Shown: positions 24,437 to 33,257 of the stretch, piece by piece
Numbering within the stretch: position 1 is the stretch's first letter
How the letters are laid out: each line of letters starts with the position of its first letter
Origin: an uncultured Methanobrevibacter sp.
GTDB lineage: Archaea > Methanobacteriota > Methanobacteria > Methanobacteriales > Methanobacteriaceae
Length of the DNA stretch: 61,208 nt
Direction of reading: 5' to 3'
Assembly: GCA_902789505.1 (NCBI GenBank)
Contig: CADAOO010000002.1
Coordinates: 1-61,208, forward strand
Position numbers and translations under genes: made by a program
The notes under the pieces: model-generated
What the model was told of the DNA's origin: nothing
Seen by the model: only the letters and a program-made list of their open reading frames with translations
Databases searched by the model: none

Positions 24437-24445
24437 GTGTTTATA

Positions 24446-25138
24446 TTGAAAGTAATAGAAAAACCAATAACTATCGAAGAAGATGACTCATTTAAGATGG
24501 TATTGTCAAAATATGGTGCTTTAGCTTTAGACAAACAGGAAAATCTTTCAGAACTGATTGGTGAAACTTCCGGTGAGTTGGATATTGAAAAAGGCATTCT
24601 ATCTTTTGGCGATATAGTTTTTCCAATTCAAATATTAGGATTTTACTCTCAAGACTTAATGCAATGGTCTTGGGCGTGGGATAATGAAGAGATATTCGGG
24701 GAAAATTTAATCAGAGCATCAAAACAAATGAAAACTATTGGGGATGAGTTTGATATACCTGAGTTTACTTCTACAGCAATTCAATCTGATTTCAATGATT
24801 GCCATACATTGGCTATGGTTGCAACTTCAATATTGAATATGGATGCTTATTATGCAGTATCTGAAGATGGTATTGACATTTTTGTGCTTATCAAATCAGA
24901 TTTAATCGAAGAAAACGATTCAGTAGTAAAATTCAGAGACACTTTCTACACTTTCCAAAAGAATTTCAATATTTATCCAAAAATTGCATTTGAAGCCTAC
25001 ACCAAACTCAAAGGATATGGGTTTAAACCTCATGAGGATTTTGCACTTGCTAAAATCGGTGAAAGCCGTGTAATGGCAGGTTTTACCGAAAGGGGAAATA
25101 TTACCCGTATTATTATATTTGGTGATGAAGAAAGGTGA
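24446..25138 (+). CDS. Conserved hypothetical protein, DUF6882-like
   Basis: About 230 residues, no signal or membrane segment. The stretch FYSQDLMQWSWAWDNE is typical of a family of small cytosolic proteins catalogued as DUF6882, with a following STAIQSDFNDCHTLAMVA helix. Initiation is most likely at TTG 24446, placed 6 nt after AGGTGTTT, since no ATG is available at the beginning. It starts 10 nt after dapL and is followed by two more unknown genes, so it probably shares the dapL transcript. The function is unknown. Confidence 0.6.
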   Translation: MKVIEKPITIEEDDSFKMVLSKYGALALDKQENLSELIGETSGELDIEKGILSFGDIVFPIQILGFYSQDLMQWSWAWDNEEIFGENLIRASKQMKTIGDEFDIPEFTSTAIQSDFNDCHTLAMVATSILNMDAYYAVSEDGIDIFVLIKSDLIEENDSVVKFRDTFYTFQKNFNIYPKIAFEAYTKLKGYGFKPHEDFALAKIGESRVMAGFTERGNITRIIIFGDEER

Positions 25139-25142
25139 TTGT

Positions 25143-25727
25143 ATGAATCCGGATTTAGTTGAAGAAATAGAATTCATGTTGGATACACTCACTAAATCTG
25201 GTTTTTTCAACAAAGAGGAAATCCTTGAAATATTGGAGGATGAATTTATTGAGGAGGATATTGACTTTTCTCAATTTAATTTCTCTTTAAATGACTTTGA
25301 CAATGCCAATTTCGCTAAATTGGAAAAAATTTTCAATGACCTTGCGGATGAAAATATTGTAGCTATTCATAACTGCGGTTACGATATTGAAGAGGGAGTT
25401 CAGGACGCATTTGAGTTGTTTGTTCATTTGCAGAATAATGATTTCACACCAGCAGGTTTTTGTTTTTACACTTTTGAAGATATTGAAGAAGCAATATATG
25501 GAAGTAAATTAAAAATCACCTTCGGGGATTTTGAAAACAATGAAGATAAGGCTTTGGAAATTGGTAAAATTATAAACCGCCACCTTAAAGAAGTCGGTTT
25601 TAAAATCAACTGGGATGGTACAATCAACAACCAAATTGAGATTGTTCCGTTTGTTTGGGACAAGTCTTATAATGAAGAAAAGGAATATGAAATTGAAGGG
25701 GCGTATAATAGTTTTGTAAGGTGTTAA
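25143..25727 (+). CDS. Conserved hypothetical protein, DUF6891-like
   Basis: A protein of 194 residues starting MNPDLVEEIEFMLDTL. The region DAFELFVHLQNNDFTPAGFCFYTFEDIEEAI is characteristic of proteins catalogued as DUF6891. The frame opens at 25119 inside the preceding gene, but AAAGGTGATT directly before ATG 25143 fixes the start. Acidic and soluble, function unknown. Second of three unknown genes after dapL. Confidence 0.65.
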   Translation: MNPDLVEEIEFMLDTLTKSGFFNKEEILEILEDEFIEEDIDFSQFNFSLNDFDNANFAKLEKIFNDLADENIVAIHNCGYDIEEGVQDAFELFVHLQNNDFTPAGFCFYTFEDIEEAIYGSKLKITFGDFENNEDKALEIGKIINRHLKEVGFKINWDGTINNQIEIVPFVWDKSYNEEKEYEIEGAYNSFVRC

Positions 25728-25729
25728 AA

Positions 25730-26323
25730 ATGAATGGCAGGTCACTTAAATTAATCCGTGATGTAATTATCAATTCAGGCAAATTGACTTCTATAGAAAT
25801 ATCTCAGGATTCAATATACTTGGAATTTAAGGATGTTGAGCTTGGAGTTCCAAAAGAAACGGAAGACTTTTCACTGACAGTTCGTTTTGCACTCGATTCC
25901 TTTTTCACAGTTTTTTATGACAATATCTGGGATATAGAGTTTTTCTCAAAATACAATTTTAAAAATCAATTTTTAAGTGAAGTTGTTTTATTTGAAGTTG
26001 AAGACATCCGCTTCACCGATTTTGAATATCTTAACACTTTTTTCCATGATTTCAAAAAAGAAAAAACAATTTCTGTTGTAGAAGATTTCAGTATTCACAA
26101 TATCAGAAATGACTTTTTCATGTTAATTAAAACAAAGGAAATAGCTATTGCCGTCGGGGGCAATCAGATGGATTTCTTTACTAACCATGAACGGCTGACT
26201 GATGCATCTTTAAGGGAATTGTCAAACCAGTGGATGCTGTACTTTCTGAAGTATCATCTTAAAAGGAATATCATTAAGGATCCTATGTGTGAAAATCATC
26301 CTTTAGCATATCCTAAAAAATAA
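25730..26323 (+). CDS. Hypothetical protein
   Basis: 197 residues, soluble, mixed alpha/beta by appearance (alternating strands such as SIYLEFKDVELGV and IAIAVGGNQMDFF), with a C-terminal helical segment and a final HPLAYPKK. I recognise no family. The ATG at 25730 lies 2 nt after the preceding stop, with AAGGTG as ribosome site, so it is translationally linked to the two previous genes. It may work with them, as all three share size and lack catalytic signatures. Confidence 0.6.
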   Translation: MNGRSLKLIRDVIINSGKLTSIEISQDSIYLEFKDVELGVPKETEDFSLTVRFALDSFFTVFYDNIWDIEFFSKYNFKNQFLSEVVLFEVEDIRFTDFEYLNTFFHDFKKEKTISVVEDFSIHNIRNDFFMLIKTKEIAIAVGGNQMDFFTNHERLTDASLRELSNQWMLYFLKYHLKRNIIKDPMCENHPLAYPKK

Positions 26324-26438: not shown

Positions 26439-27056
26439 TTAGAAGAAGGACATCATGAAATTATACATGTCCCTAATTCCGGATACAAATCCGTTATACT
26501 GATTGTTATGAATATTGGCCATATCATCTTCAATACGGTAATCCACTTCTTTTTGGAATGTAGTGTTATTGTAGTCGTGGTCTGTAAAGTAATGAAGCTG
26601 AATTGCATAATTGGTATCCTGAGTATGGAAAACATAGTTAACACCAATATGATTCCATATTGTGTCAGTATCTCTTGAAGGATTTGAGAAGTATTGTTTT
26701 GAAACTGGAATGCCTCCTAAAGTGATATCCTCAGTTTTGAGAACTTTATAACCTCCATTTTCCATAGCCCTAAATTTGGCTTCCGAGATTGACGAAATAT
26801 GATCTTCAGGCCAATCATCCCAATGGTCTATAACTACATACTTATTTGTAATTGCATTGGGGGTTTTTGATTCGTTTGTCATATTCAATTCTTCGGTTGT
26901 ATTCCAAGCTTCCGGAACAACAGTTGCACTGTGGCCGAATTCGATACTTTTATCAGTTTTAAGACTTAAAAAACTATTGATTGCATTGATATTGGTTGCA
27001 ATGAATAATATGATAATAAAGATAAGTACCGCATGAAGTATATCTTTTCGCCTCAT
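26439..27056 (-). CDS. Membrane-anchored extracytoplasmic protein, PsbP-like
   Basis: 205 residues. An N-terminal basic stretch (MRRKD) and a hydrophobic helix (about residues 7-26) give an anchor or signal; the remainder is hydrophilic and carries several N-x-T/S sites, consistent with exposure outside the cell. The GGIPVSKQYFSNPS and DTIWNHIGVNYVFHTQDTNYAIQLHYF segments resemble small PsbP/DUF1795-like folds. It overlaps the glycosyltransferase gene by 4 nt, so it is the last gene of the signalling operon and may act with the glycosyltransferase at the cell surface (inference). Confidence 0.65.
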   Translation of the reverse strand: MRRKDILHAVLIFIIILFIATNINAINSFLSLKTDKSIEFGHSATVVPEAWNTTEELNMTNESKTPNAITNKYVVIDHWDDWPEDHISSISEAKFRAMENGGYKVLKTEDITLGGIPVSKQYFSNPSRDTDTIWNHIGVNYVFHTQDTNYAIQLHYFTDHDYNNTTFQKEVDYRIEDDMANIHNNQYNGFVSGIRDMYNFMMSFF

Positions 27057-28801
27057 TGTTCTTTTCTCCCCTTATGTTCAGTTTTTGCCCATTTTCTTTC
27101 TTTTCTAGTCATCATAGTGTACATTGTCATAAAAAACAATGGAATTAAATGGAAACAGTAAATGTAATATTTTATTAAATCTTTAAGAAAATCGGTTACG
27201 GAAGGTTTGTCTCTTGAAAGAGCAAGGATAATTCCCGGGAAAAATGCAATCATGGATAAGAATCCTACAATAAATGGTGCTTCCATTCTAATGACAGTGA
27301 AATCATGGAAAAAGAACCATGAAATTGCATTTATCAATGTAACAAGAAATCCGAAGAAGATTAATAAATTGAAACTGTAAAATGAAATATGTTCTATAAT
27401 GTTAAACTTACGAGCAACAGATATTTTAGCTCTTAAAATCTGAGGCAGATATACGAATAAAGTTTCAAAGTTACCTATAGCCCATCTTACTCTTTGTCTG
27501 AAAAACGCTCTCCATTCTGTCACTGCTTCCTGATACACTGCACATTCTCCGCAGTAACGTATCTTTCCATTGTTGAGCATTATTTTAATAGCTAAGTTCA
27601 AATCTTCAGTTACCGCAAATCCGTCCCATCTTCCTGATTCTATAATTGATGATTTTTTAACGAATTGCCCATTACCGCCTAAAAATCCTGTACTCCCCAG
27701 ATTATCTTTTGCAGTTAATGTATTCCCAAAACTGGCGAATTCAACATGCTGCATACGGGCTAAATAGTTTTCATTTCTGTTCCACATTTTAACCCTTGAT
27801 TGCACCCCGTCAATATCTCCATTCAGATATTGGACAATGGTATATAGATAATCTGTTTTGATTTGAGTATCCGCATCGAAAACGCCGATTATTTCCCCTT
27901 TGGATAAAGTTAAAGCATCATTCAATACAAATCCTTTACCCTTTCCGGACCTTGGAGGGTGTCTTGTAACTATTTTTAATTGCGGCAAATCCTTTTTCAG
28001 TTCGGCAAGGATTTCTCCGGTGCGGTCTGTTGATCCGTCATTGATAACGATTACTTCAAAATTAGCTTCATCACCGAGGTAGTAATCGGAATTGCATACG
28101 CTTCTAACAGTTGGTTCGATAGTGTATTCCTCGTTGTGTGCCGGAATAAAAACGCTTATAAAAGGAAGCTCATCCTCTTCATATTTAACGACTGGCTTTT
28201 GCTTTTTAGCACTGACAATTGAGTTTAAAAGCATTGCAAATGTTGGAATTAAGAGCACCCATTGAAGCCAGGTTGCATTTCTGCTCAATATAGCTATTAT
28301 AATCAGTGAGACACATAAAACCAAAAGCAAACTTGAATCTGACTTTTCAATCATCAGTTCAATATTCTTTTCCCTGATTTTGTCTTCAGCCAATTTAACA
28401 TTCATTATGTTTTGCTCATGCTTTTTGAGGGCAACTGCCATAGACCTTTGAAGTTCGTCTTTATCCAGTGGTTTTAGCAAATAACCGAAAGGATTGCTCA
28501 TTAGCAGCTTGTCGATTGTTTCGTCAAAAAGAGCACCGACGATGATGATTATCGGCACATTGAAAAGCTCCAAGTCCCCGGTCAAAGAAAGTAAATCCAG
28601 TCCCTCTTCTTCTGTATCTAAAAAAATTAGGTTGGGGGATATTGTATCTATCTTTGAAAAGATATCTGCTGATTCAGATGCTGATCCCCAGTCTTCATAG
28701 TCGTAATCTTCGACATATTCCTTAATTTGGGACAACAAGAAATCATCAGAGCTTATAGTAAATATCTTAGGCTTTCCTTCAATTAACTCTAACTCAGTCA
28801 T
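27053..28801 (-). CDS. Response-regulator receiver fused to membrane family-2 glycosyltransferase
   Basis: A 582-residue fusion. Residues 10-125 form a receiver domain with D19/D20, phospho-acceptor D62 (LIFLDTEEEG) and K110 (GYLLKPLD); the usual Thr/Ser is replaced (IIIIVGA at 85-90). A coiled linker, two membrane helices (158-175, 178-196) and a GT2 catalytic domain follow: FIPAHNEE, INDGSTDRT, DADT (309-312), TED (398-400) and the processive signature QRVRW (436-440). Three more helices (473-498, 508-528, 545-563) end it. The order matches cellulose- or hyaluronan-synthase-like polymerases. The stand-alone receiver gene lies 9 nt upstream. Phosphorylation probably tunes polysaccharide synthesis (inference). 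Confidence 0.85.
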   Translation of the reverse strand: MTELELIEGKPKIFTISSDDFLLSQIKEYVEDYDYEDWGSASESADIFSKIDTISPNLIFLDTEEEGLDLLSLTGDLELFNVPIIIIVGALFDETIDKLLMSNPFGYLLKPLDKDELQRSMAVALKKHEQNIMNVKLAEDKIREKNIELMIEKSDSSLLLVLCVSLIIIAILSRNATWLQWVLLIPTFAMLLNSIVSAKKQKPVVKYEEDELPFISVFIPAHNEEYTIEPTVRSVCNSDYYLGDEANFEVIVINDGSTDRTGEILAELKKDLPQLKIVTRHPPRSGKGKGFVLNDALTLSKGEIIGVFDADTQIKTDYLYTIVQYLNGDIDGVQSRVKMWNRNENYLARMQHVEFASFGNTLTAKDNLGSTGFLGGNGQFVKKSSIIESGRWDGFAVTEDLNLAIKIMLNNGKIRYCGECAVYQEAVTEWRAFFRQRVRWAIGNFETLFVYLPQILRAKISVARKFNIIEHISFYSFNLLIFFGFLVTLINAISWFFFHDFTVIRMEAPFIVGFLSMIAFFPGIILALSRDKPSVTDFLKDLIKYYIYCFHLIPLFFMTMYTMMTRKERKWAKTEHKGRKEQ

Positions 28802-28810
28802 TTAAATCCG

Positions 28811-29221
28811 TTATTGTGTGAATCCGCTTGCATCGTTTAATTTGTCTTCTTCAAGTTTTGCTCTGTTGATTGTTATTTTAAGAGTTTTGTCTAATTTGTT
28901 GATGTCGTATGGTTTTGACACAAATCCGTATGACCCTTTTACGTTTGATTTTTCAAAGGTGTCTGTATCTGTGTTTGCGGTTAAGTATATGATTGGTATT
29001 CTGAATTCGGAGATAACTTCTGCTGCTTCAATACCTTCCATATCTCCTTTTAATTTGATATCCATTAAAACAACATCCGGTACTTTTTCTGCTGCAACAT
29101 CGATAGCATCTTGACCGGTATCAACAGTATCAATAACTTCATAACCTAATTCTTCTAAGCTGTATTTCAAATCCAATGCAGTAATTGCTTCATCTTCAAC
29201 AACTAATATTCTTTCATTCAT
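28811..29221 (-). CDS. Stand-alone response-regulator receiver
   Basis: 136 residues, a single CheY-like domain with all key residues: E9/D10, phospho-acceptor D54 (VVLMDIKLKGDMEGIEAA), T81 (YLTANTD) and K103 (FVSKPYD). There is no DNA-binding domain; the last 20 residues are a short helix. It lies between the sensor kinases and the receiver-glycosyltransferase, so it may act as a phosphate carrier or competing sink in a relay (inference). Confidence 0.93.
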   Translation of the reverse strand: MNERILVVEDEAITALDLKYSLEELGYEVIDTVDTGQDAIDVAAEKVPDVVLMDIKLKGDMEGIEAAEVISEFRIPIIYLTANTDTDTFEKSNVKGSYGFVSKPYDINKLDKTLKITINRAKLEEDKLNDASGFTQ

Positions 29222-29298
29222 GTTATTGCCTCATATATCATTAATTTTATGTGTTTTATAATATTTAATATTTTTATTCATTCGCATTCTCTAAAACG

Positions 29299-31167
29299 TT
29301 ATCCCTCTATAGTGTGCTCCATTGTTATAGGGAATGTCAATTTGTATCCTGTTCCGTTTTCATGTTGGAACAATTCGATATGTCCGTCAAGTTGCTTGGT
29401 GAGATTCTTGATAATTTCACATCCCAGATTTTTAGTGATTTTATCCGGATCATCAATTCCGACACCGTTATCTTGAAGGATTAATTGAGCATTCTCATTG
29501 TCGATTTTATAGATTTTCTTGATAATTTTCTTATTTTGCATTGTTTTATCCGGGAATGCATGTTTAATAGCATTCATGGTTAGCTCATCAATAACAAGCA
29601 ACAATGGTGTAATAACTTCAATTGTTAGGACAAGATCGCCATCAACTTCAGATTCAAATTCGATTCCATCCCTCAGACCAATTAAACCGCGTAATTGGCT
29701 GTCTTGATCTTCGATGTATTCTTTCAGGTTAATGTTTTTGAAATCAGTTGTATTGTAGGTTTTTTCGTGAAGGATAGCAAGAGATGATAATCTGGACTGC
29801 ATATGGTCAATAATTATGTTTGGCTTATTTTTATATGCTCTTTTTTCCAGATTTAAGAAACTGTTCAATACCTGCAGGTTGTTTTTAACCCTGTGGTGAA
29901 CCTCTTTAATCAATACTTTTTGATGCTCGTTAGCTTCCATTAATGCTAACTGTTTGGTTCTCTCTTCAGTAACGTCAGTTAAAAATCCGATACTGTGTGA
30001 TTCGGAACCAAATTCGAACCTTTCAATGTATAATTCAGCCATTTTTTGATGGTTTTCATCTCCATTCACATTGTATGTGAATGTTTCTTCAAGTTCGTTG
30101 ATTTGCCCATCCATTAACCGTATAATGTTGTTGATTACGTCTTCTTCTACGATATTCTGAACAATCGCACGGGAGTGATGATAATCTTCTGGAGATATTC
30201 CGATGAAGTGGTAGAATCCCTGTGAGAATTCATATTGCTTTGGGTTTAAAGGTTCAATCAGCAATGCTAATTTTTTATTGTTTTTAAATCCTTTAAGCAA
30301 GAAATCAACAGGTCTTGTCATTTTTCTGGTTGAGTCTGTACTCACATCTTTTATCAAACCGTAACGACTTAATAACAATCCGTCGTCATCAAATTTGGAG
30401 TAAAGATTCACTTCAAGATATTTTAAAATCCCGTCATCAGTTCTGATTCTGACTACACTTTCGTAGTTGCTTCTTCCGCTATCCAGCTCTTTAAGCATTT
30501 TTTCGAGCAGGGGCTTGTCTTCAGGAATCACCAGGTCAAAAACAATATTGAAATACTCGTCATTTTCTTCTCTTGACCTGTTGATGATATTATAGATACC
30601 CTGTGTCCAGGAGTATCTGTCCTTGATTTTATAGTAACTTCCGGTTTGTGAGAAATATTCGATGAGATTTGCTTTTTCGTCATATTCTTCATCGGAAACA
30701 TGGAGACTGGTTCCTCGATTATCCCTATGGTCTGAAATTAAAATCAGCTTTTCCATGTCATAGATAATTTTCACATTCGAAAATCTGGCTAATTTTTCAT
30801 GGAAGTGATAATAAAATCTCATTTTCTTCATTTTATGAGTTTCATAAACCTCTCTTAGAGGTTCTTTTAAAATATTATAAAATCCTGGTGATGTTTTACT
30901 CAGTAAACGCCCGGCCACATCAGTCTGTTTAATGTGCCCTCTTATAAGTGCACTCAAACCTAATCTGTGAACGATAAAATCTTCACCATTATCAATTGGT
31001 ACAAAGATGTCCAGGTCATTACTAAGTTCGTTTAATGTTTTGTCAAATGGGGTGAACGGTATTTCAAATTCCTGTGGAACGTATTGGAACAATTCACTTT
31101 CTTTAACGTCATAGATATTGACTTCTTCAGTATCTTCTAGTTTCCTAAATGTTTTTTCAATTCTCAT
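29299..31167 (-). CDS. Soluble sensor histidine kinase, PAS and HisKA_2 type (copy 2)
   Basis: About 622 residues without membrane helices. The N-terminal half holds PAS-like sensor regions, of which YFSQTGSYYKIKDRYSWTQG with its later RIRTDDGILKYLEV is a PAS_3-type unit. A second PAS-like segment ends IGFLTDVTEERTKQ. The phosphorylatable histidine is in EVHHRVKNNLQVLNSFL (around residue 424), and ATP-site boxes are VIDELTMNAIKHAFP and LQDNGVGIDD. GGGAGGGTGA before ATG 31167 decides the start, overlapping the upstream kinase by 11 nt. It is a close paralogue of that kinase. Confidence 0.92.
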   Translation of the reverse strand: MRIEKTFRKLEDTEEVNIYDVKESELFQYVPQEFEIPFTPFDKTLNELSNDLDIFVPIDNGEDFIVHRLGLSALIRGHIKQTDVAGRLLSKTSPGFYNILKEPLREVYETHKMKKMRFYYHFHEKLARFSNVKIIYDMEKLILISDHRDNRGTSLHVSDEEYDEKANLIEYFSQTGSYYKIKDRYSWTQGIYNIINRSREENDEYFNIVFDLVIPEDKPLLEKMLKELDSGRSNYESVVRIRTDDGILKYLEVNLYSKFDDDGLLLSRYGLIKDVSTDSTRKMTRPVDFLLKGFKNNKKLALLIEPLNPKQYEFSQGFYHFIGISPEDYHHSRAIVQNIVEEDVINNIIRLMDGQINELEETFTYNVNGDENHQKMAELYIERFEFGSESHSIGFLTDVTEERTKQLALMEANEHQKVLIKEVHHRVKNNLQVLNSFLNLEKRAYKNKPNIIIDHMQSRLSSLAILHEKTYNTTDFKNINLKEYIEDQDSQLRGLIGLRDGIEFESEVDGDLVLTIEVITPLLLVIDELTMNAIKHAFPDKTMQNKKIIKKIYKIDNENAQLILQDNGVGIDDPDKITKNLGCEIIKNLTKQLDGHIELFQHENGTGYKLTFPITMEHTIEG

Positions 31168-33067
31168 CAGATTCACCCTCCCATAATTCACGGTGATATT
31201 CAATTGTATGTTCGAAGTTTACCGGGAATAATATTTTAAATCCGGTTCCAACTTCACAGTCTAAAATTTCAAGTTCTCCATTAATTTGTCTAGTTAAGTT
31301 TTTAATTATTTCCCAGCCTAAGTTATGGTTAACCAGAGATTCTTTATCTTTTAAGCCAATTCCATTATCCCTCAATATTAACTCACATATGTATTCATCA
31401 ACAAAATCAATTTTTTTGGATATTGTCTTATCAGGCATATCAGGGTCTGGAAATGCATGTTTAATCGCATTCATTGTCAATTCGTCAACTATCAGAAGCA
31501 AAGGTATAATAACATCAATGGAAAGATGGATTTCAGGATCAACATCTGAAGTGAAGTTAATGTCTTTTGCCCTGTATAGCGTTTCTAATGTGGAATCCTG
31601 GTCTTTCATATAATCTTCAAGGTTAATGTTGATGAAATCTTCAGTATTATAGGTTTTTTCGTGAAGCAGGGCAAGTGAAGCTAAACGTGTTTGCATGTTG
31701 TCTAAGATACGATTTGGATTGTCTCCATATTCTCTTCTTTCAAGGTTTAAGAAACTGTTCAATACCTGCAGGTTATTTTTAACCCTGTGGTGAACTTCCT
31801 TAATTAGAATATTTTTGGTTGCGTTTGACTCCACCAGTTCTTGCTGTTTCTTACGTGAAAGGGTAATGTCAGTTAAAAATCCTATGCTGTGGTCTTGATT
31901 GCCGTATTTAAAGCGTTCAATGAATAATTCGCATATTTTGCAGTTGTCAATATCTCCATTTACTTTATATGTAAATACAGTATTAAGTTCATTAATTTCA
32001 CCGGCAATTAATTTTTTAATTTCTTTTCTTACATCTTCTTCAATAATATTATTGAGGATTTCTGTATTGTGGATGTATTCATTTTTAGGGATTTCAATCA
32101 TTTTATAAAACCCTTCACTAAATTCGTAGCGTTTACTTAAAGGTTCCACAAGCAATGATAACTTGGAATTGTGATTGAATCCATTTAACATGAAATCAAC
32201 AGGTCTTGTCAGGTGTTTGTGTGAATCAATACTGATGTCCTTAAACAGCCCGTAGTGACTTATCTCTTCACCATTTTCATCAAATTTTGAGTAGAGACAT
32301 GTGTCAAGATATTTAATGTGTCCTCCAGGTGTTTCAATACGAATGATGTTTTCATAGGTATCGGTTTCAGGACTCATGGTTTCTAATAATTCTTCAACTA
32401 ATGGTCTGTCTTCAGGTATCACCAAATCAAAAATAATATTATAATATGCATCGCTAGCTTCTTTTGAACGGTTAATTATATTATAGATGCCGGGTGTCCA
32501 TGTAAATTCATCATGTGTTTTATAATAGCTTCCGGTTTGTGAGAAATATTCAATTAAATTAGCTTTATTTTCATCTTCTTCTTCCTTTTGTTGTTTTTCG
32601 GTTTTAGTGCGTGTTTCTGCTTTTTTCAAATCAGAAATGGCATAAATTTTTCCTTCATCACATAGAACATGAATGTTTGCCAGTGTCACGATCTTATCAC
32701 TAATGTAATAAAACATTCTCAGAGGTTTTGTTTCTCCGGTTTCACAAACTTCTTTAAATATGTCTTTAAAGATATCGTAATAGAATGGAGAAGCTTCGCT
32801 AAATTTCCGCCCCTCAACATCTTCTTCTCTTATATTTAGTCTTTCAAGCAAATTCCAGCCTATTCTTTCGACAAGATAATCGTCACTATCTTCTATAGGA
32901 GAAAAAACATTGATGTCTGAAGGTACATGTTTCATAATATTGCTAAAACGAACTTTATCCAGCTTCTTGACTTGTTTCGCGGGATGAAATACTTCATATT
33001 TGTCAATATTATAAACTCGTATTTCTTCTATTTTTTCCAATTCTCTAAATTGCCTTTCAACATGCAT
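31157..33067 (-). CDS. Soluble sensor histidine kinase, PAS and HisKA_2 type (copy 1)
   Basis: 636 residues, no membrane helices, same architecture as the following kinase: about 170 residues of N-terminal PAS-like region, a charged linker (KAETRTKTEKQQKEEEDENK), a PAS_3-type unit (YFSQTGSYYKTHDEFTWTPG), another PAS-like region, then EVHHRVKNNLQVLNSFLNLE (His near residue 426) and ATPase boxes VDELTMNAIKHAFP and LRDNGIGL. First gene of a five-gene minus-strand operon. It presumably senses an intracellular signal through PAS and phosphorylates the receiver proteins; the signal is unknown. Tandem duplication is evident. Confidence 0.92.
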   Translation of the reverse strand: MHVERQFRELEKIEEIRVYNIDKYEVFHPAKQVKKLDKVRFSNIMKHVPSDINVFSPIEDSDDYLVERIGWNLLERLNIREEDVEGRKFSEASPFYYDIFKDIFKEVCETGETKPLRMFYYISDKIVTLANIHVLCDEGKIYAISDLKKAETRTKTEKQQKEEEDENKANLIEYFSQTGSYYKTHDEFTWTPGIYNIINRSKEASDAYYNIIFDLVIPEDRPLVEELLETMSPETDTYENIIRIETPGGHIKYLDTCLYSKFDENGEEISHYGLFKDISIDSHKHLTRPVDFMLNGFNHNSKLSLLVEPLSKRYEFSEGFYKMIEIPKNEYIHNTEILNNIIEEDVRKEIKKLIAGEINELNTVFTYKVNGDIDNCKICELFIERFKYGNQDHSIGFLTDITLSRKKQQELVESNATKNILIKEVHHRVKNNLQVLNSFLNLERREYGDNPNRILDNMQTRLASLALLHEKTYNTEDFININLEDYMKDQDSTLETLYRAKDINFTSDVDPEIHLSIDVIIPLLLIVDELTMNAIKHAFPDPDMPDKTISKKIDFVDEYICELILRDNGIGLKDKESLVNHNLGWEIIKNLTRQINGELEILDCEVGTGFKILFPVNFEHTIEYHRELWEGESDEN

Positions 33068-33257
33068 GTAAATTACCTTGAGTTTATAATTTATATGGAT
33101 AATATTTTTGTTTAATATGATATTTATAGTATATGAATTATTTTTTCGAAAATTTTCATTTTATATTGGAAAAATTTTTTAATTATGAATAATAAAATAT
33201 TCTTGTTATGGAACTTTTCTTAATGTTCACATTTATGAAATAATTAAGGTGTATTAG
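33068..33257. promoter_or_regulatory. Divergent promoter region, kinase operon and purA
   Basis: 190 bp of AT-rich sequence between divergent genes. TATA-like elements are seen on both strands (for example TTTATAGTATATG near 33122). GAAAATTTTC at 33148-33157 is a simple palindrome. TTAAGGTG precedes the purA ATG. No convincing operator. Confidence 0.45.

What the first reader, a model, noticed from the sequence alone, without database searches (positions are those of the whole stretch)
26439..33067. Two-component operon whose output is a membrane glycosyltransferase
Two paralogous soluble PAS/HisKA_2-type kinases, a free receiver, a receiver fused to a processive GT2 (DADT, TED, QRVRW motifs; five membrane helices) and an anchored extracytoplasmic protein lie in one direction with overlaps or short gaps. 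The sequence shows the fusion directly. GT2 synthases are normally controlled by cyclic di-GMP or partner proteins; a built-in receiver suggests phosphorylation-controlled polysaccharide synthesis in an archaeon. The output is thus post-translational rather than transcriptional (inference).
Basis: partly seen in the sequence, partly recalled or inferred. Interest (0 to 1): 0.78.

Follow-up and report, generated by a model that had tools for sequence, protein, structure and literature searches.

The report
Kinase-controlled sugar-polymer synthase with pseudo-receiver
A gut methane-making archaeon carries one gene set in which sensor kinases appear to steer a membrane sugar-polymer enzyme through two linked receiver proteins, and this seems to be the only two-component signalling output its genome has.

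Summary
The five-gene operon is real (33067->26439, minus strand): two paralogous soluble PAS/HisKA_2 kinases, a free receiver, a receiver-GT2 membrane synthase fusion, and an anchored protein whose predicted fold resembles PsbP/Mog1. It is syntenic across Methanobrevibacter. The fusion itself is not new: Galperin et al. 2018 list REC-BcsA and REC-REC-BcsA in Methanobacteriaceae.

The fused receiver is a pseudo-receiver. In the window it lacks three of five catalytic residues (acidic pair S17-S18, T->V88), as do all 18 operon-type relatives; D62 is kept. The free receiver next door is fully canonical and the best-conserved part compared. It carries the C-terminal tail of the first receiver of REC-REC-GT relatives, so it is probably a split-off REC1. 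Likely route: kinases -> free receiver D54~P -> docking on the pseudo-receiver -> GT2 control, a PleD-like logic in trans.

New here: the only two receivers found in this genome (84% complete) are these two. In the genus, receivers occur in the 33 genomes with the fusion plus two others, probably contaminant contigs. All four HisKA_2 kinases found are paralogues. So this synthase looks like the only two-component output. Product, signal and sign of regulation are unknown; nothing was tested biochemically.

The parts
31157..33067 (-). HK1: soluble histidine kinase, 636 aa (N-terminal domain, PAS_3, HisKA_2, HATPase_c); His in KEVHHRVKNNLQ
   Evidence: Pfam; His, N-box and G1 box intact in alignment; syntenic in relatives
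29299..31203 (-). HK2: paralogous soluble histidine kinase; longest frame 634 aa (TTG), probable start ATG at 31167 (11-bp overlap with HK1)
   Evidence: Pfam; 52% identity to HK1; start inferred from alignment with relatives
28811..29221 (-). Free single-domain receiver, 136 aa; canonical E9 D10 D54 T81 K103; C-terminal tail ...DKLNDASGF
   Evidence: PF00072 2e-21; acidic pair, D and K kept in 29/29 relatives, T/S in 29/29; tail motif in 25/25 long free receivers; 91% mean pairwise identity in 17 genomes
27053..28801 (-). REC-GT2 fusion, 582 aa: pseudo-receiver plus membrane glycosyltransferase
   Evidence: Pfam, AlphaFold2 mean pLDDT 86, Foldseek best matches cellulose and hyaluronan synthases
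28427..28774 (-). Pseudo-receiver domain of the fusion (residues 10-125); acidic pair -> S17 S18, T -> V88; D62 and K110 kept
   Evidence: predicted receiver-like fold
27467..28186 (-). GT2 catalytic domain (residues 206-445) with NDGSTD 254, DADT 309, TED 398, QRVRW 436
26439..27056 (-). 205-aa protein: N-terminal membrane helix plus predicted extracytoplasmic domain resembling PsbP/Mog1/LpqN/DcrB
   Evidence: AlphaFold2 mean pLDDT 78.7, Foldseek E 2e-4 to 1e-3 with TM-scores about 0.4; no Pfam family; adjacent to the fusion in most relatives
33068..33257 (-). Intergenic region divergent from the adenylosuccinate synthetase-like gene; A+T-rich, TATA-like stretches; probable operon promoter (inference)
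   Evidence: sequence read; no experiment
29222..29298 (-). 77-bp gap between HK2 and the free receiver with TATA-like A+T stretch and GAGG before the ATG; possible second promoter (inference)
   Evidence: sequence; gap of 44-95 bp kept in most relatives with HK2; two relatives keep the receiver module without adjacent kinases (L053, L054)

Best explanation
A complete, dedicated two-component pathway that acts directly on a membrane polysaccharide synthase. Soluble PAS kinases (two here, a third intact paralogue elsewhere, plus a fourth with a broken ATP site) sense a cytoplasmic signal and phosphorylate D54 of the free receiver. The phosphorylated free receiver then binds the degenerate receiver attached to the synthase, in the way the true receiver of PleD acts on its pseudo-receiver, but in trans. 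Docking is relayed along the continuous helix (residues 114-173) that joins the pseudo-receiver to the first membrane helix and switches sugar-polymer synthesis or export, with the 205-aa protein as the outer-face partner. Shown: gene content, synteny, motif loss and retention, shared REC1 tail, absence of other receivers in the genome held. Inferred: phosphotransfer, docking, direction of control, polymer synthesis, role of the 205-aa protein.
For: Fused receiver: acidic pair non-acidic and T lost in 19/19 operon-type proteins (window plus 18 relatives); D kept 19/19, K 17/19. In other genera with a single fused receiver D is lost as well. Free receiver: acidic pair, D and K 29/29, T/S 29/29. 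Constraint differs: free receiver 91% mean pairwise identity, fused receiver 62%, GT domain 81% in the same 17 genomes. Tail motif [KR][LVI][ND]x[ASH]xG: 25/25 long free receivers, 6/11 REC1 of tandem REC-REC-GT, 0/36 GT-attached receivers, 0/8 other free receivers. Long free receivers lie upstream of single-receiver fusions, usually 2-34 bp away, and not beside tandem fusions. Only two receivers in the own genome; in 28 of 33 fusion-bearing genomes of the genus all receivers lie at the fusion loci. Both kinases keep His, N-box and G1 box. PleD precedent: PMC12632262.
Against: D62 is invariant in operon-type relatives, so some residual chemistry there cannot be excluded. No interaction was modelled or measured. 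The receiver tree does not resolve whether free receivers and REC1 form one clade. The number of independent losses is small (at least 2), so degeneration and receiver splitting cannot be tied together statistically. Some tandem fusions keep both receivers canonical (L056-L058), so a pseudo-receiver is not essential to the design. The genome is 84% complete.
Confidence: 0.6

Rival explanations
1. One reading: the kinases phosphorylate D62 of the fused receiver directly and the free receiver is a side branch or phosphate sink.
For: D62 and K110 are kept in the window, and D62 in 19/19 operon-type proteins; tandem relatives with canonical GT-attached receivers exist, so direct phosphorylation was plausibly the ancestral mode.
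Against: Mg2+-binding pair is S17 S18 and the switch Thr is V88, absent in 19/19; neighbouring acidic residues do not hold a fixed position, so a register shift does not rescue it; in other single-fusion genera even D is Ser.
Confidence: 0.12
2. The pseudo-receiver is a constitutive assembly or dimerisation module for the synthase; the free receiver acts elsewhere (for example on the kinases) and the operon link is co-expression only.
For: Pseudo-receivers can act without phosphorylation (PMC12632262); fused receiver diverges fast.
Against: Free receiver carries the REC1 tail and stays next to the fusion even where the adjacent kinases are gone (L053, L054); no other receiver output was found in the genome.
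Confidence: 0.2
3. The GT2 is not a polymer synthase but a membrane glycosyltransferase making a lipid-linked or single-sugar product; control is as in the main model.
For: Best curated family PgaC/IcaA scores 130.7 bits against a cut-off of 422; QxxRW also occurs in some non-processive GT2 enzymes (own knowledge); no export or polymer-modification genes adjacent.
Against: Full D, DxD, TED, QxxRW set and best structural matches BcsA and hyaluronan synthase.
Confidence: 0.2

Closest known systems
REC-BcsA and REC-REC-BcsA fusions of Methanobacteriaceae (MTH_548; Galperin et al. 2018, PMC5847659)
   Same: Same architecture and family of archaea; the window protein belongs here.
   Different: The passages read give domain architecture and distribution only. 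Not found there: pseudo-receiver state, free receiver with REC1 tail, kinase neighbourhood, the 205-aa partner, or that this is the only receiver output found in most of these gut genomes.
PleD of Caulobacter (receiver - pseudo-receiver - diguanylate cyclase)
   Same: A true receiver acts on an adjacent pseudo-receiver that carries an enzyme (PMC12632262); relatives L064/L065 have receiver - Asp-less receiver - enzyme in one chain.
   Different: Here the true receiver is a separate protein and the enzyme is a membrane glycosyltransferase; dimerisation not shown.
BcsA / hyaluronan synthase / PgaC processive GT2 enzymes
   Same: Catalytic motifs, membrane helices flanking the GT domain, predicted fold.
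   Different: No PilZ domain found and no GGDEF protein found in this genome; regulated by receivers instead.
HisKA_2 kinases such as PhyK/LOV kinases
   Same: HisKA_2 plus HATPase_c, PAS sensor; closest NCBIfam profile PhyK.
   Different: Far below the PhyK cut-off (98.6 vs 750 bits); soluble; own N-terminal domain; partner is a single-domain receiver, not PhyR.

Membership tests
REC-BcsA fusion of Methanobacteriaceae | PF00072 followed by PF13641 GT2 in one chain | tested here: met
   literature
Canonical receiver (phospho-acceptor) | All five active-site residues (acidic pair, D, T/S, K) - fused receiver | tested here: not met
   acidic pair and T lost; D and K kept
Canonical receiver (phospho-acceptor) | All five active-site residues - free receiver | tested here: met
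   E9 D10 D54 T81 K103; conserved in 29 relatives
Pseudo-receiver (Bourret et al. 2025) | Recognised as receiver but lacks at least one of the five residues | tested here: met
   PF00072 E 2.5e-6; three residues lost; definition
Aspartate-less receiver (ALR) | Phospho-acceptor Asp absent | tested here: not met
   D62 present in window and 18 relatives; absent in other genera
Processive GT2 synthase | D, DxD, TED, QxxRW motifs plus flanking membrane helices | tested here: met
Processive GT2 synthase | Polymer product | not testable with these tools
   needs biochemistry
PgaC/IcaA poly-GlcNAc synthase | NCBIfam TIGR03937 curated cut-off | tested here: not met
   130.7 vs 422.3 bits
c-di-GMP-regulated BcsA | PilZ domain and c-di-GMP synthesis | tested here: not met
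   no PilZ among Pfam matches; no GGDEF in own genome
HisKA_2 histidine kinase | HisKA_2 His, N-box Asn and G1 box of the ATPase | tested here: met
   HK1, HK2 and the C27 paralogue intact; the C35 paralogue has lost N-box Asn and G1
PleD-like receiver/pseudo-receiver switch | Phosphorylated receiver contacts pseudo-receiver and switches the enzyme | not testable with these tools
   inferred
PsbP/Mog1 fold | Structural match of the 205-aa protein | tested here: inconclusive
   Foldseek E 2e-4 to 1e-3 with probability about 1.0, but TM-scores only about 0.4

The most novel reading that the evidence does not exclude
In Methanobrevibacter and related gut methanogens the two-component repertoire has shrunk to one pathway: several paralogous kinases feed one free receiver, which works by docking onto a pseudo-receiver that gates a membrane polysaccharide synthase. 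This would be a PleD-type switch split in trans, with no transcriptional output, and the first archaeal pseudo-receiver with an assigned role.
Probability: 0.45. Interest if true: 0.78.

Novelty: new variant of a known kind. Interest (0 to 1): 0.6.

Why it matters
A 2025 review states that 10-15% of archaeal receivers lack the phospho-acceptor Asp and that its authors know of no published study of archaeal pseudo-receiver function (PMC12632262). This operon gives a small, self-contained, conserved system with one canonical receiver, one pseudo-receiver and a measurable enzyme, in gut methanogens. If right, it shows how a gut archaeon ties its only two-component pathway directly to cell-surface sugar synthesis rather than to gene expression. 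It also corrects the residue to test: D54 of the free receiver, not D62 of the fusion.

Tried and rejected
Receiver tree to prove that free receivers are split-off REC1: backbone unresolved and long degenerate branches attract, so the tail motif was used instead (first regex too strict; relaxed one, chosen after seeing the sequences). Independent-pairs test of degeneration against free receiver: only two usable pairs. A register shift to rescue the acidic pair (S17-S18-D19-D20): rejected, positions 19-21 are not consistently acidic. Pfam for the 205-aa protein and 23 relatives: nothing consistent. Literature for Methanobrevibacter two-component/glycosyltransferase work: nothing beyond Galperin 2018 in the held library. 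GT2 relatives without receiver (G104, G105, G137; 27-34% identity) were set aside as not this family. A genome-contig scan for fusions outside the family returned, apart from one contig labelled Bacillales (L101) and a few broadly labelled archaeal MAGs, only Methanobacteriaceae (limited by its two GT motifs).

Full report
OBSERVATION. The window is one contig of a 1.89-Mb, 84%-complete genome whose relatives are named Methanobrevibacter. Five minus-strand genes run 33067->26439. HK1 and HK2 are 52% identical soluble kinases with PAS_3, HisKA_2 and HATPase_c. Then come a free receiver, the 582-aa REC-GT2 fusion and a 205-aa protein with one N-terminal hydrophobic helix. Spacing is -11 (from the likely ATG of HK2), 77, 9 and -4 bp. 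Across relatives the fusion/205-aa pair usually overlaps by 4 bp and the receiver/fusion gap is usually 2-34 bp. The same order lies between the same flanking genes (adenylosuccinate synthetase-like gene; DUF6882/DUF6891 genes) in about two dozen Methanobrevibacter genomes.

THE FUSION IS KNOWN. Galperin et al. 2018 (PMC5847659) list REC-BcsA and REC-REC-BcsA proteins in Methanobacterium, Methanobrevibacter and Methanothermobacter, first noted for MTH_548. In the genome set held here, 51 of 139 family genomes match the protein at E <= 1e-20; three of these (G104, G105, G137; 27-34% identity) are other GT2 enzymes.

THE FUSED RECEIVER IS A PSEUDO-RECEIVER. In the published nomenclature the five catalytic residues are the acidic pair, D, T/S and K, and loss of any one makes a pseudo-receiver (PMC12632262). 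In the window these are S17 S18, D62, V88 and K110. In 19 operon-type proteins (window plus 18 relatives) the acidic pair is never acidic, T is always V or I, D is always present and K is present in 17. In several other genera with a single fused receiver D has become Ser as well (L055, L059, L062, L063). More distant relatives keep a canonical GT-attached receiver (L056-L058, L061, L066-L070). The domain still has a receiver-like predicted fold and Pfam E 2.5e-6.

THE FREE RECEIVER IS CANONICAL. E9, D10, D54, T81, K103; across 29 relatives the acidic pair, D and K never vary and T is T or S. Mean pairwise identity among 17 genomes is 91% for the free receiver, 62% for the fused receiver and 81% for the GT domain.

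FREE RECEIVER AND REC1. Tandem relatives have REC1-REC2-GT. A C-terminal tail motif after the last receiver helix is present in 25/25 long free receivers and 6/11 REC1 domains, but 0/36 GT-attached receivers and 0/8 other free receivers (the motif was written after looking at the sequences). Long free receivers sit upstream of single-receiver fusions; tandem fusions lack one. This gene split/fusion relation is direct comparative evidence that the free receiver and the fusion work together. The receiver tree itself does not resolve the question. On the GT tree the degenerate state needs at least two changes, too few for a statistical link.

THE ONLY TWO-COMPONENT OUTPUT FOUND. A PF00072 scan of the own genome finds two receivers, both in this operon (one further match at E 0.017 is treated as noise). 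In the same genus 33 genomes carry the fusion and 35 carry any receiver: those 33 plus G069 and G077. Both exceptions have a GGDEF gene on the same contig, so bacterial contamination is likely (inference). In 28 of the 33 every receiver lies at a fusion locus; the exceptions are G050, G055, G060, G061 and G062. This holds in single-contig genomes G039 and G037, and in G013 of another genus. Six of the seven receiver-rich genomes of other genera (12-26 receivers) also carry the fusion. The own genome has four HisKA_2 kinases, all of one paralogous family; the one on contig C35 has lost the N-box Asn and the G1 box. No GGDEF was found in the own genome. In G042 (complete) the operon is deleted, leaving the last 44 codons of the fusion and the intact 205-aa gene, with no receiver or HisKA_2 kinase match.

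STRUCTURE. AlphaFold2 on the window fusion with 27 relatives: mean pLDDT 86; one continuous helix 114-173 runs from the last receiver helix into the membrane; Foldseek best matches are cellulose synthase and hyaluronan synthase. Linker residues K145, L149, E152 and K153 are invariant in 28 sequences. The exact membrane topology is unsettled. The 205-aa protein (mean pLDDT 79) resembles PsbP, Mog1, LpqN and DcrB at modest TM-scores of about 0.4.

MECHANISM. Most likely (0.6): kinases -> D54 of the free receiver -> docking on the pseudo-receiver -> control of GT2 through the helix, by analogy with PleD. Phosphotransfer, docking, sign of control, polymer and the role of the 205-aa protein are inferred. 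The review says its authors know of no published study of archaeal pseudo-receiver function.

VERDICT. Observation confirmed; interpretation partly supported. The architecture is known; the pseudo-receiver/free-receiver division of labour and the single-output status were not found in the literature held. New variant of a known kind.

Noticed in passing
L118:232-2094 (G000:C35): A fourth kinase paralogue has lost the N-box Asn (LTMDSIKYS) and G1 box (KYCRLEN) but keeps the His region: a likely pseudokinase, next to fumarate-hydratase-like and oxidoreductase-like genes.
   Followed up: partly
L122:9259-10009 (G042): Complete genome in which the operon is deleted; only the last 44 codons of the fusion and an intact 205-aa gene remain.
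   Followed up: yes
L072:8582-16352 (G037): Complete genome with the fusion split by a frameshift and kinase-like frames broken up: apparent decay of the operon.
   Followed up: partly
L096: The HK1-HK2-free receiver set faces a tandem REC-REC-GT set, without a single-receiver fusion between them.
   Followed up: no
L060:5007-9197: Fusion with about 800 extra N-terminal residues of repeated SKLDxI-like coiled-coil sequence before the degenerate receiver.
   Followed up: no
window 24437-26323: Three plus-strand ORFs (DUF6882, DUF6891, unknown) convergent with the operon and conserved beside it across Methanobrevibacter.
   Followed up: no
L101: Fusion contig (51% identity) in a metagenome bin labelled Bacillales; most likely a mis-binned Methanobacteriaceae contig.
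   Followed up: no
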